Assembly: GCF_005280195.1 (NCBI RefSeq)
Contig: NZ_SZPR01000019.1
Span: 392,584-456,583 of the forward strand
Direction of reading: 5' to 3'
DNA length: 64,000 bases
Source of the DNA: Streptomyces galbus
GTDB lineage: Bacteria; Actinomycetota; Actinomycetes; Streptomycetales; Streptomycetaceae
The translations under genes were made by a program, and so were the position numbers. Position 1 is the stretch's first letter, and the number at the start of each line of letters is the position of its first letter. Positions 61,740 to 64,000 of this stretch are shown in pieces. The notes under the pieces were generated by a model, which saw only the letters and a list, made by a program, of their open reading frames with translations, made no database searches and was not told the origin of the DNA.

Positions 61740-63278
61740 TCACCGCGCCCCGGCCCGCCAGCGCTGGTCCGCGCCGTCGTCCAGGCGGGCGAACGTCAGG
61801 CCGCCGTAGCCGTCCTCGGCCAGGGCCGTCTCCAGGGCGATCGCCGGGCGGACCGTGCCGTCCGGGTCGACCAGGAAGGTCAGGTTCTCGCCGTTGCCGC
61901 CGTACACCGACGAGCACGTCCACACGCCCACGCCCCGGTCGACGGAGCCGCGGCTGTCCAGGCAGAAGTCGGGGTCGGCGGCCGACTGGAGCACGCCCCG
62001 GCCGGCGTCGAACCGCCAGCGCTGGCTCACCGACGACGAGCACGCAACCGTGAGCACGTCCGTGCCGTCGGAGAAGTCACCGGCCACCTCCAGGCAGCGG
62101 CCCGAGGCGACGTTCACGACCTGCGCGAACGCCGCACCCGGCGCCCGCGTCGGCGAGGGGGTGGGCGTCGGCTTCGGCGTGGGCCGCGGGGAGGGCGGGC
62201 GCGTCGTGCGCGTGGGGGAGGGGGAGGGGGAGGCGGAGGGACGGCTCGGGCTGGGGACCGGCGCCGGCACGGACACCGTGGCGGTCACCGTCACCGGGGG
62301 GACGCTCGGCGGCGCGCCGCTCGCGGCCCCCGCGCCCTGCCGGTCCCGCGAGTCGGCGGAGGCGACCAGCAGCACCAGCACCGGGGCCAGCGCCACCCCC
62401 AGCGCGGCCGAGACGAGCACCAGGCGGCGGGAGGGCGGCCGGACGGCGGCGGCCCCGACGGGTCCGGCGGAGTGCGGGGCGGGCCGGTCGCGGTCCTCGG
62501 CGGCGTACGCCGTCCCGGCCCACGGCAGCAGCCCCTCGGCGAGCGTGCCGCGCGGGGCGTCGCGCAGGGCGCGTTGCTCCTCGTGGGCGGTGGCACAGTG
62601 CGGGCAGTGGGCCTTGTGGGCGTCCAGGTCCGGGCTCGGGCGCGGCGCGTCGGTGCGGACGGACTGCTCGATCAGCCGCCGGAAGTCCGGGCAGCGGGGA
62701 TCGTCGGAGGCGGCGAGGCGGTGCCGCAGCGCGGCGCCGGCCAGGGACTGCAGGGCGGGCGCGATGCCGTAGGAGACGTCCGCGGGGGTCAGGCCCAGCA
62801 GGGCCGCGGTGCGCTCCACGGGCTCGCGCTCGACCACGCCGTACCAGAGCAGGCCCTGGTCGCGGGAGGGGAGCGACTGGAAGGCGCTGAGCAGCGGCGG
62901 GACGGGGCCGCGCGGGCCGGCCGTGTTCAGGACCAGCAGCAGGCCGGGGTCGAGACCGGCGGACCGCTCGTCGGCGGCCCACTCGCCGGCGACCCGGGCC
63001 GCCAGGAGCAGGAGCTGGTGCCGCCAGGGCAGCCCCGGGTCGGTGCCGCGGGCGGTCTCCCGCGCTGCCAGGGTGAAGGCCTGCGCGGCGAGGCGGCGGG
63101 CGGCAGGGTCGCCGCTCGTGCACAGGCGGGCGTAGGCGAGCACCGCCGCGTCGTGCCGGGCGCGCAGCTCCCGCAGCGCCGGGTACGCGGTCGCCGGCGC
63201 GGCCCGGAGCAGTGCGACGAGCCGGGCGTCGGAACCGCCCGCGGGCACGCCGTCCCCGGCGCGCTCACCCTGGGCCAT
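61740..63278 (-). CDS. Sigma-factor-like / zinc-finger / transmembrane / ricin-lectin fusion protein
   Basis: 512 residues. N-terminal cytoplasmic part: a region-2-like helical block (RHDAAVLAYARLCTSGDPAARRLAAQAFTLAARE, about 40-75) and a region-4-like HTH (LLSAFQSLPSRDQGLLWYGVVEREPVERTAALLGLTPADVSYGI, about 135-180). Then an anti-sigma-type HxxHCPHC (near 230), a transmembrane helix (LVLVSAALGVALAPVLVLLVASA, about 285-310), a long Ser/Pro/Thr linker, and a C-terminal ricin beta-trefoil (about 390-512; SGRCLEVAGDFSDGTDVLTVAC...SQRWRF). ATG 63278 has GAGGAGG six bases upstream. This would be a surface lectin tied to a sigma/anti-sigma module; the sigma-like part may be inactive. Confidence 0.8.
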   Translation of the reverse strand: MAQGERAGDGVPAGGSDARLVALLRAAPATAYPALRELRARHDAAVLAYARLCTSGDPAARRLAAQAFTLAARETARGTDPGLPWRHQLLLLAARVAGEWAADERSAGLDPGLLLVLNTAGPRGPVPPLLSAFQSLPSRDQGLLWYGVVEREPVERTAALLGLTPADVSYGIAPALQSLAGAALRHRLAASDDPRCPDFRRLIEQSVRTDAPRPSPDLDAHKAHCPHCATAHEEQRALRDAPRGTLAEGLLPWAGTAYAAEDRDRPAPHSAGPVGAAAVRPPSRRLVLVSAALGVALAPVLVLLVASADSRDRQGAGAASGAPPSVPPVTVTATVSVPAPVPSPSRPSASPSPSPTRTTRPPSPRPTPKPTPTPSPTRAPGAAFAQVVNVASGRCLEVAGDFSDGTDVLTVACSSSVSQRWRFDAGRGVLQSAADPDFCLDSRGSVDRGVGVWTCSSVYGGNGENLTFLVDPDGTVRPAIALETALAEDGYGGLTFARLDDGADQRWRAGAR

Positions 63279-63297
63279 GGGCCCCTCCTCACCGGAC

Positions 63298-63315
63298 ACT
63301 GACGTACTGGTCAGT
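63298..63315. promoter_or_regulatory. TetR-type palindrome upstream of the sigma-ricin fusion
   Basis: ACTGAC-GTACTG-GTCAGT is a perfect 6+6 inverted repeat 20 bases above the ATG. Such TGAC...GTCA palindromes are typical TetR-family operators. The gene itself has no adjacent TetR regulator. Confidence 0.55.
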
Positions 63316-63375
63316 CTGAAGTGGGGGTGACCATAGTGGCCGCGGGGGCGCCTGGGGAGGTTTCCCGGGGTAACG

Positions 63376-63409
63376 GCGGGAGCCGGAGCACCAGGGCTCC
63401 GGCTCCCGC
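63376..63409 (-). terminator. Terminator of the sigma factor gene
   Basis: GCGGGAGCCGGAGC (63376-63389) and its exact inverse (63396-63409) form a 14-bp stem with a 6-base loop, beyond the stop of the sigma factor. Confidence 0.88.
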
Positions 63410-63455: not shown

Positions 63456-64000
63456 TCAGTCCTCGGTCGTCAGCCCCCGCCGCAGCCGCACCAGGGTGCG
63501 CGTGAGCAGGCGCGAGACGTGCATCTGGGAGATGCCCAGCTCGTCGCCGATCTCCGACTGGGTCATGTTGGCGACGAAGCGCAGCGACAGGATCGTGCGG
63601 TCGCGGGGCGTCAGCTCGGCGATGAGCGGCTTGAGGGACTCGACGTACTCGATGCCCTCCAGCCCGTGGTCCTCGTAGCCGATGCGGTCGGCCAGCGTGC
63701 CCTCGGTGTCGTTCTCCTCGGCCTGCGCGTCCAGCGAGGCGGCGGTGTACGCGTTGGAGGCGGACATGCCCTCGACGACCTCGTCGTGGGAGAGGCCGAG
63801 CCGCTCGGCCAGCTCCGCGACGGTGGGCGCGCGGTCCAGCGCCTGCGCCAGCTCGTCACCGGCCCGGGCGAGGTCCAGCCGCAGCTCCTGCAGGCGGCGC
63901 GGCACGCGCACGGACCACGAGGTGTCGCGGAAGAAGCGCTTGATCTCGCCGATGATGGTGGGCATCGCGAACGTGGGGAACTCGACGCCGCGGGACAGCT
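63456..64000 (-). CDS. sigI: SigB/SigF-family sigma factor, 5' end beyond the window
   Basis: The last 180 codons of a stress or development sigma factor. The frame is open past the ATG at 63965 into the window edge (LSRGVEFPTFAMPTIIGEIKRFFRDTSW is region 2.3-2.4), followed by region 3 (SVRVPRRLQELRLDLARAGDELAQ) and region 4 (LTPRDRTILSLRFVANMTQSEIGDELGISQMHVSRLLTRTL, the promoter-binding HTH). This is the SigB/SigF/SigI branch controlled by anti-sigma factors. In S. coelicolor sigI lies beside the hut genes in this order, so I name it sigI. A strong terminator follows. Confidence 0.85.
   Translation of the reverse strand, partial: LSRGVEFPTFAMPTIIGEIKRFFRDTSWSVRVPRRLQELRLDLARAGDELAQALDRAPTVAELAERLGLSHDEVVEGMSASNAYTAASLDAQAEENDTEGTLADRIGYEDHGLEGIEYVESLKPLIAELTPRDRTILSLRFVANMTQSEIGDELGISQMHVSRLLTRTLVRLRRGLTTED

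What the first reader, a model, noticed from the sequence alone, without database searches (positions are those of the whole stretch)
61740..63278. Sigma-like domain, zinc-binding segment, membrane helix and ricin lectin on one chain
The protein combines cytoplasmic region-2/region-4-like helices, an HxxHCPHC motif as in anti-sigma zinc fingers, one membrane helix, a long linker and an extracellular ricin beta-trefoil. It could be a one-protein carbohydrate sensor in which a sigma-like domain is held at the membrane by its own anti-sigma segment and released on glycan binding. It sits next to sigI and has a TetR-like palindrome at its start.
Basis: partly seen in the sequence, partly recalled or inferred. 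Interest (0 to 1): 0.7.

Follow-up and report, generated by a model that had tools for sequence, protein, structure and literature searches.

The report
Lectin receptor with a degenerate sigma-factor domain
This Streptomyces gene encodes a membrane protein with a sugar-binding domain outside the cell and, inside, a well-kept but apparently disarmed copy of a transcription sigma factor joined to its own anti-sigma segment, so it probably signals by gripping other proteins rather than by switching on genes directly.

Summary
The anatomy is real: sigma2-like and sigma4-like segments, a zinc anti-sigma segment (C-H-C-C), one membrane helix, a Pro-rich linker and a ricin lectin. The plan is not new. 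It is that of ECF52 sigma factors (SCO4117 in S. coelicolor), for which glycan-triggered release of the sigma part has already been proposed in print; some ECF52-like proteins already carry a ricin lectin.

What differs here is the sigma half. In 27 of 27 orthologs the DAED tetrad of region 2.2 (RNA-polymerase contact) has no acidic residue, and the second arginine of the 'RARE' motif in the sigma4.2 recognition helix is lost (the first survives in one). Pfam finds no sigma domain in 19 of 19 such proteins scanned, against 5 of 5 intact relatives. Yet this part is homologous over its full length to ECF52 (hhalign 99.9%; reversed and shuffled controls null), is conserved about as well as the lectin, and keeps all zinc ligands.

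Such proteins form one supported branch (98/99), with at least five groups bearing ricin or CBM2 domains. The window's group lies directly after a sigI-type gene in 26 of 26 further loci. Best reading: an ECF52-derived pseudo-sigma receptor acting by protein-protein exchange. Structure prediction was inconclusive; mechanism untested.

The parts
61740..63278 (-). gene for the 512-aa pseudo-sigma / anti-sigma / TM / ricin-lectin protein
   Evidence: ORF and translation; 27 orthologs counting the window
62949..63182 (-). sigma2-like segment, aa 33-110 (borders approximate)
   Evidence: hhalign to the sigma2 part of ECF52-type proteins, prob 98.6
63093..63104 (-). site of the DAED tetrad (aa 59-62), here AARR
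   Evidence: no acidic residue in 27 of 27 orthologs; acidic at the 4th position in 7 of 7 intact Streptomyces relatives
62721..62894 (-). sigma4-like segment, aa 129-186 (borders approximate)
   Evidence: hhalign to the sigma4 part of ECF52-type proteins, prob 98.0
62727..62789 (-). degenerate sigma4.2 recognition helix, aa 164-184, no K/R in the window protein
   Evidence: second R of 'RARE' absent in 27 of 27, first R present in 1 of 27
62493..62720 (-). zinc anti-sigma (ASD-like) segment, aa 187-262, ligands C196, H221, C225, C228
   Evidence: C-H-C-C in 27 of 27 orthologs; hhalign prob 92.9; weak zf-HC2 hit in ortholog L053 (E 0.026, below Pfam's cut-off)
62358..62423 (-). single membrane helix, aa 286-307
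   Evidence: hydropathy maximum with Arg-rich N flank, shown for each of 27 orthologs
62139..62306 (-). Pro/Ser/Thr-rich linker, aa 325-380
   Evidence: sequence
61758..62126 (-). ricin-type beta-trefoil lectin, aa 385-507
   Evidence: Pfam PF00652 E 7e-13; found in 9 of 9 further orthologs scanned
63298..63315 (.). ACTGAC-N6-GTCAGT inverted repeat between a promoter-like block and the ribosome-binding site
   Evidence: CTGAC-N6-GTCAG in 7 of 7 close orthologs, 0 of 20 others
63456..63998 (-). upstream sigI-type (SigB/F/G family) sigma gene, runs past the window end
   Evidence: NCBIfam TIGR02980 E 2e-63 on the part in the window; upstream on the same strand in 26 of 26 other ortholog loci

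Best explanation
It is a single-pass membrane lectin receptor descended from ECF52-type sigma/anti-sigma fusion proteins whose sigma part has become a pseudo-sigma. Shown here: the homology, the domain order, the loss of RNA-polymerase- and DNA-contact motifs, the retention of the zinc anti-sigma segment, and purifying selection on the cytoplasmic half. Inferred: the pseudo-sigma sits on its own anti-sigma segment as a built-in cap; glycan binding by the outer ricin domain (or cleavage near the membrane) opens this pair; the freed anti-sigma segment or the freed pseudo-sigma then binds a partner in trans. The likeliest partner is the sigma or anti-sigma half of an intact ECF52 paralog in the same cell, so that sugar sensing tunes that regulator by partner exchange rather than by direct promoter recognition.
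For: Full-length profile homology to ECF52-type proteins, with each sub-domain matching and controls null. A profile of window, 6 orthologs and 4 own paralogs finds ECF sigma structures first in the PDB (SigE, E 7e-4). Pfam sigma families: 0 of 19 degenerate proteins scanned against 5 of 5 intact relatives scanned. DAED tetrad without acid 27 of 27, R12 of the recognition helix 0 of 27, Zn ligands 27 of 27. pN/pS over 9 pairs, the near-identical window-L009 pair set apart: sigma2 0.32-0.41, sigma4 0.35-0.53, ASD 0.11-0.34, lectin 0.20-0.53, TM region 0.79-1.45. Mean majority-residue conservation in 26 sequences: ASD 0.81, sigma2 0.78, sigma4 0.76, lectin 0.76, linker 0.62, TM region 0.52. The degenerate proteins form one branch, 98/99 support. 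The same genome holds an ECF52-type paralog with recognisable sigma region 2 (L006). In known complexes anti-sigma helix 1 touches the DNA-binding region of sigma4 and helix 4 the RNA-polymerase-binding region of sigma2 (PMC7406223, passages), the regions that changed here while the anti-sigma segment stayed. PhyR is a precedent for a sigma-like domain that works only by binding an anti-sigma factor (PMC4598750, passage).
Against: No binding partner, ligand or activity was tested. Structure prediction was poor (pLDDT 52, 63) and fold searches gave nothing. The window group's profile alone finds no chain in the PDB at E up to 10; the link runs through the wider family. Loss of function is inferred from motifs; some sigma factors without DAED regain activity by phosphorylation (ECF43 and others, PMC8103513 passage). 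Other degenerate groups keep part of the motifs: of 11 such proteins 2 keep an acid in the tetrad and 2 keep both arginines. Not all relatives called intact have complete motifs either (both arginines in 13 of 18 non-Streptomyces ones). The fixed neighbour is a sigI-type gene, not an ECF52 gene.
Confidence: 0.45

Rival explanations
1. Active one-protein sugar sensor: the sigma part is released and drives its own regulon with unusual promoter specificity, as proposed for ECF52.
For: Same domain order as ECF52, for which this model is in print; full-length homology; the sigma-like parts are under purifying selection.
Against: Acid-free tetrad in 27 of 27 (ending RR or RQ in 23); no R12 in the recognition helix in 27 of 27; Pfam finds no sigma domain in 19 of 19 scanned. 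Ser/Thr that phosphorylation could charge lie in the tetrad of only 5 of 27 and not in the window protein.
Confidence: 0.15
2. The cytoplasmic half is only an anchor or scaffold: the protein works as a wall or surface lectin, and the sigma/anti-sigma part is an inert, stably folded relic.
For: Loss of sigma motifs; long Pro-rich linker and lectin suit a surface protein; lectin well conserved, 30 of 126 positions invariant in 26 sequences.
Against: The anti-sigma segment is the most conserved part (25 of 76 positions invariant), zinc ligands 27 of 27, and the juxtamembrane G249-L-L stretch and W253 are invariant; an inert anchor would not need this.
Confidence: 0.2
3. The protein is part of the SigI stress circuit: it senses envelope or sugar state and tunes SigI or its partner-switching regulators.
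For: A sigI-type gene lies upstream on the same strand in 26 of 26 other ortholog loci; two diverged copies (G002, G021) also sit beside it.
Against: sigI-type orthologs (at least 80% identity) occur in 53 of 61 genomes, but of the 30 best-scoring sigI loci only 11 have this gene within about 1.5 kb, so SigI does not need it. In S. coelicolor SigI is regulated by anti-sigma factor PrsI through phosphorylation-based partner switching (PMC8346170 passage), not by an ECF-type anti-sigma segment. Synteny alone may explain the neighbourhood.
Confidence: 0.12

Closest known systems
ECF52 sigma factors (SCO4117 of Streptomyces coelicolor)
   Same: Order sigma2-sigma4, zinc segment, membrane helix, Pro-rich linker, outer carbohydrate-binding domain (PMC5826349 passages); the window group aligns over its whole cytoplasmic half with ECF52-type proteins.
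   Different: No recognisable sigma domain by Pfam/NCBIfam; DAED tetrad and recognition-helix arginines lost; a ricin lectin where SCO4117 has a smart00776 module (NPCBM, by recall) and the own-genome relative L006 has NPCBM.
ECF52-like proteins with ricin lectin on Streptomyces plasmids (L021, L024, L027, L028)
   Same: Same order and a ricin-type lectin; three are annotated 'sigma-70 family RNA polymerase sigma factor', the record of L028 has no annotation.
   Different: These keep Sigma70_r2, the acid at the 4th position of the tetrad and the RARE arginines. That they belong to group ECF52 is inferred from the tree, not from the published classifier.
PhyR sigma-like domain (alphaproteobacterial general stress response)
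   Same: A sigma2/sigma4-like domain that does not act as sigma but regulates through an anti-sigma factor (PMC4598750 passage).
   Different: PhyR is a response regulator binding NepR; here the pseudo-sigma is fused to a zinc anti-sigma segment, a membrane helix and a lectin. A working resemblance only; kinship was not tested.

Membership tests
ECF52 sigma factors | Recognisable ECF sigma domain | tested here: not met
   No sigma family in Pfam or NCBIfam at E up to 5; 0 of 19 degenerate proteins in Pfam against 5 of 5 intact
ECF52 sigma factors | DAED tetrad for RNA polymerase contact | tested here: not met
   No acid in 27 of 27
ECF52 sigma factors | Basic sigma4.2 recognition helix (RARE in 7 of 7 Streptomyces ECF52-type proteins) | tested here: not met
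   R12 in 0 of 27, R10 in 1 of 27
ECF52 sigma factors | Zinc segment after sigma4 | tested here: met
   C-H-C-C in 27 of 27; hhalign prob 92.9
ECF52 sigma factors | Membrane helix, Pro-rich stretch, carbohydrate-binding domain | tested here: met
   helix by hydropathy only, sugar binding not tested
ECF52 sigma factors | Common descent | tested here: met
   hhalign 99.9 with null controls; one branch beside ECF52-like proteins in the tree
ECF52 sigma factors | Controls transcription | not testable with these tools
Class I zinc anti-sigma factors (ASD/ZAS) | Hx3Cx2C motif with upstream Cys in a helical segment | tested here: met
   H221-x3-C225-x2-C228 and C196, 27 of 27; helices there in the better part (block means mostly 76-88) of a weak model
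Class I zinc anti-sigma factors (ASD/ZAS) | Binds and inhibits a sigma factor | not testable with these tools
   No binding data
PhyR-type sigma mimics | Sigma-like domain lacking sigma activity | tested here: inconclusive
   Motif loss fits; activity not measured
PhyR-type sigma mimics | Receiver domain in the same protein | tested here: not met
   No receiver domain in the Pfam scan
STPK-activated ECFs (ECF43 type) | DAED replaced by a motif with a phosphorylatable Ser/Thr | tested here: not met
   Ser/Thr in the tetrad in 5 of 27, none in the window protein

The most novel reading that the evidence does not exclude
Streptomyces has evolved, once, a family of membrane lectin receptors in which a disarmed sigma factor serves as a ligand-gated mimic: it caps the fused zinc anti-sigma segment and, when sugar binds outside, swaps partners with intact ECF52 sigma/anti-sigma proteins. 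This would be transmembrane sigma-factor mimicry, with at least five paralogous receptors that read different polysaccharides (ricin, CBM2 and possibly LamG versions) into one sigma network.
Probability: 0.25. Interest if true: 0.78.

Novelty: new variant of a known kind. Interest (0 to 1): 0.5.

Why it matters
Sigma-factor mimicry is known from PhyR in alphaproteobacteria. A membrane-bound, lectin-carrying version in Streptomyces would show a second route from sigma factor to signalling adaptor and would link extracellular sugars to development and antibiotic control (SCO4117, the characterised ECF52 protein, affects both in S. coelicolor; PMC5826349 abstract). It also warns that the same domain order does not mean the same mechanism: the ECF52 model should not be copied onto these proteins without a test. 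Public annotation does not tell the two kinds apart well: the degenerate plasmid protein L022 is called a ricin-type lectin protein and L023 and L025 LamG proteins, while intact relatives are called sigma-70 family.

Tried and rejected
Structure prediction of the cytoplasmic part (aa 17-262, 7 sequences) gave mean pLDDT 52, and of the sigma4-plus-anti-sigma part 63. Foldseek matches of both models were meaningless (best E 0.34 and 2.1). I use them neither for nor against the sigma fold. The window group's profile alone found nothing in the PDB.

Viral contigs: no relative. A TetR operator: both arms are kept in 0 of the 20 wider orthologs, and the consensus occurs 14 times in the genome with up to 2 mismatches against 5 for the backward control; not pursued. 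ECF43-type phospho-activation: not supported.

Count caveats. The 27 orthologs are the window, 6 named loci and 20 unnamed ones picked at bits above 250 in a nucleotide search of 100 other Streptomyces genomes, so diverged copies are missed (two turned up later beside sigI). L014 comes from a record named only 'Actinobacteria bacterium'; its lectin is in another frame, and it was left out of the counts. In some searches, 18 of the 22 non-Streptomyces loci were counted; L095, L098, L099 and L100 were dropped for missing columns. The tree left out 7 rows (L073, L087, L095, L098-L101) and used only 3 of the 20 unnamed window orthologs plus L074. Four f13 loci (L088, L092, L093, L096) were put with the 'intact' group there although their tetrad and first arginine are partly changed. 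The first index used for the recognition helix was off by one; one search gives the right counts. The bit-score gap partly reflects which sequences made the profile.

Literature: an ECF52 protein with ricin, or a degenerate ECF52, was not found by the searches, nor SCO3069, in the held library. Huang 2015, Pinto and Mascher 2016 and Homerova 2012 were not read and are known only as cited. Of the papers used I saw abstract, passages and one section (PMC5826349) or passages only (PMC8999054, PMC7406223, PMC8103513, PMC4598750, PMC8346170; also PMC10766802 and PMC9205884, which changed nothing). SCO3069 as the S. coelicolor neighbour of sigI is recalled and was not checked.

Full report
What is there. 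The gene at 61740-63278 (minus strand) encodes 512 aa. Pfam sees only a ricin-type lectin at the C-terminus, and NCBIfam has nothing near its cut-offs. Before the lectin lie a Pro-rich linker and one hydrophobic helix (aa 286-307) with Arg-rich flanks on the N side, hence N-terminus in, lectin out (topology by the positive-inside rule, recalled).

Is the N-terminal half sigma-like? Yes, by descent. The same genome holds four relatives of the same kind (L002-L005) and one ECF52-type protein with a recognisable sigma region (L006: Sigma70_r2 and NPCBM above cut-off, zf-HC2 weak). A profile of the window protein, 6 orthologs and these 4 paralogs finds ECF sigma factors at the head of the PDB list (SigE, E 7e-4); of the 11 matches at E up to 10, 8 are named sigma factors and one is WhiG, but only the three SigE entries are below 0.001. 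hhalign of the 7 orthologs (A1) against 5 intact ECF52-type proteins (A3) gives 99.9% over 244 columns; sigma2, sigma4 and the anti-sigma part match one by one, and reversed or shuffled alignments score 0.3% or less. A3 itself matches ECF sigma structures clearly (E 4e-11). Against this: A1 alone finds nothing in the PDB, and AlphaFold models were poor.

What has changed. ECF sigma factors bind RNA polymerase through a negatively charged DAED motif in sigma2 (PMC8103513, passage). In intact Streptomyces ECF52-type proteins the 4th position is acidic in 7 of 7, and the recognition helix reads RARE in 7 of 7. In the window's ortholog group the tetrad has no acid in 27 of 27 (AARR, MARQ and the like); the second arginine is absent in 27 of 27 and the first is present in one. 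Among 11 other degenerate Streptomyces proteins, 2 keep an acid in the tetrad and 2 keep both arginines. Among 18 non-Streptomyces relatives, 15 have the acid at the 4th position, 18 have at least one acid, and 13 keep both arginines. Pfam sigma families appear in 0 of 19 degenerate proteins scanned and 5 of 5 intact ones scanned.

What has been kept. The zinc ligands C196, H221, C225, C228 are present in 27 of 27. Over 9 pairs, the near-identical window-L009 pair set apart, pN/pS is 0.32-0.41 in sigma2, 0.35-0.53 in sigma4, 0.11-0.34 in the anti-sigma part, 0.20-0.53 in the lectin and 0.79-1.45 in the TM region (simple Nei-Gojobori proportions). The anti-sigma part is the most conserved (0.81; sigma2 0.78, sigma4 0.76, lectin 0.76; 26 sequences). 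So the cytoplasmic half is not decaying; it is kept for something, and hardly for standard sigma work.

Family and spread. A tree of 46 cytoplasmic domains puts the 22 degenerate proteins on one side of a branch (98/99), with long branches that make inner placements unsure. In a sample of the class (98 genomes, 62 genera) the profile finds relatives in 28 genomes, but scores above 250 bits only in Streptomyces (4 of 6 Streptomyces genomes); the best elsewhere is 112.5. Own paralogs have counterparts in other Streptomyces: L003-type (own copy with CBM2) in three genomes (L104, L108, L109), L005-type (L103, L107), L004-type (L106), L002-type (L105). Outer domains seen by Pfam in the degenerate branch: ricin, CBM2 (L003) and LamG-type Laminin_G_3 (plasmid proteins L023, L025). 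The window's group is found by nucleotide search in 20 of 100 other sampled Streptomyces genomes.

Setting. Upstream, on the same strand, lies a sigI-type gene in 26 of 26 other ortholog loci. The downstream EamA transporter gene was seen in 3 of 26; 20 of those loci hold little sequence downstream. sigI-type orthologs (80% identity or more) exist in 53 of 61 genomes; of the 30 best-scoring sigI loci, 11 have this gene next to them and 19 do not within about 1.5 kb. That the neighbour is the ortholog of S. coelicolor SigI is inferred from its SigB/F/G family match and from divergent anti-sigma and anti-anti-sigma-like genes (read by eye) as described for SigI (PMC8346170, passage). A promoter-like block lies upstream: CACTATGG (up to 1 mismatch) in 7 of 7 close and 17 of 20 wider orthologs, GGTACGTCAG (up to 1 mismatch) in 6 of 7 and 15 of 20 (such short words can occur by chance, but in most loci they keep their order and a spacing of 23-26 bases).

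How it most likely works. Known class I anti-sigma domains contact the DNA-binding region of sigma4 with helix 1 and the RNA-polymerase-binding region of sigma2 with helix 4 (PMC7406223, passages). These regions are what changed in the pseudo-sigma, while the anti-sigma segment on the same chain stayed. The simplest reading is that the pair still closes on itself but the sigma part no longer makes a holoenzyme; glycan binding or cleavage would expose one half for a partner in trans, as PhyR does with NepR (PMC4598750, passage). The intact ECF52 paralog is the natural partner; this is inference, and SigI is the alternative suggested by position.

Compared with what is known. The order of domains and the release model are those of ECF52 (PMC5826349 abstract and passages; PMC8999054 passages). 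ECF52-like proteins with ricin lectins already sit in public records as 'sigma-70 family RNA polymerase sigma factor'. New here, as far as the held library shows, is that a Streptomyces branch of this family has lost the sigma motifs while keeping the anti-sigma part. I file the protein as ECF52-derived, not as an ECF52 sigma factor, because defining features were tested and not met.

Noticed in passing
L023:2053-4740 and L025:1906-4749: On two Streptomyces plasmids a LamG-type degenerate sigma protein gene follows a MHYT-domain membrane protein gene by 30 bases, as if in one operon.
   Followed up: no
window 63279-63400, minus strand: A promoter-like block (GTTACCC, GGAAACC, CACTATGG, GGTACGTCAG) recurs upstream of the gene in many orthologs; the cognate regulator is unknown.
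   Followed up: partly
L088, L092, L093, L096: Relatives from one other actinobacterial family (f13) have a partly changed DAED tetrad and only one of the two arginines; perhaps a second, independent case of sigma decay.
   Followed up: no
L014:3767-5552: The ortholog in contig LJCX01000031.1 has its lectin in a different frame, broken after the membrane helix; a stop in the Pro-rich region is reported for the S. clavuligerus SCO4117 ortholog (PMC5826349). Sequencing error or real is open.
   Followed up: no
L017 (G000:C16:467-479 kb): Two of the own degenerate paralogs (L002, L004) lie about 10 kb apart on the same strand.
   Followed up: no
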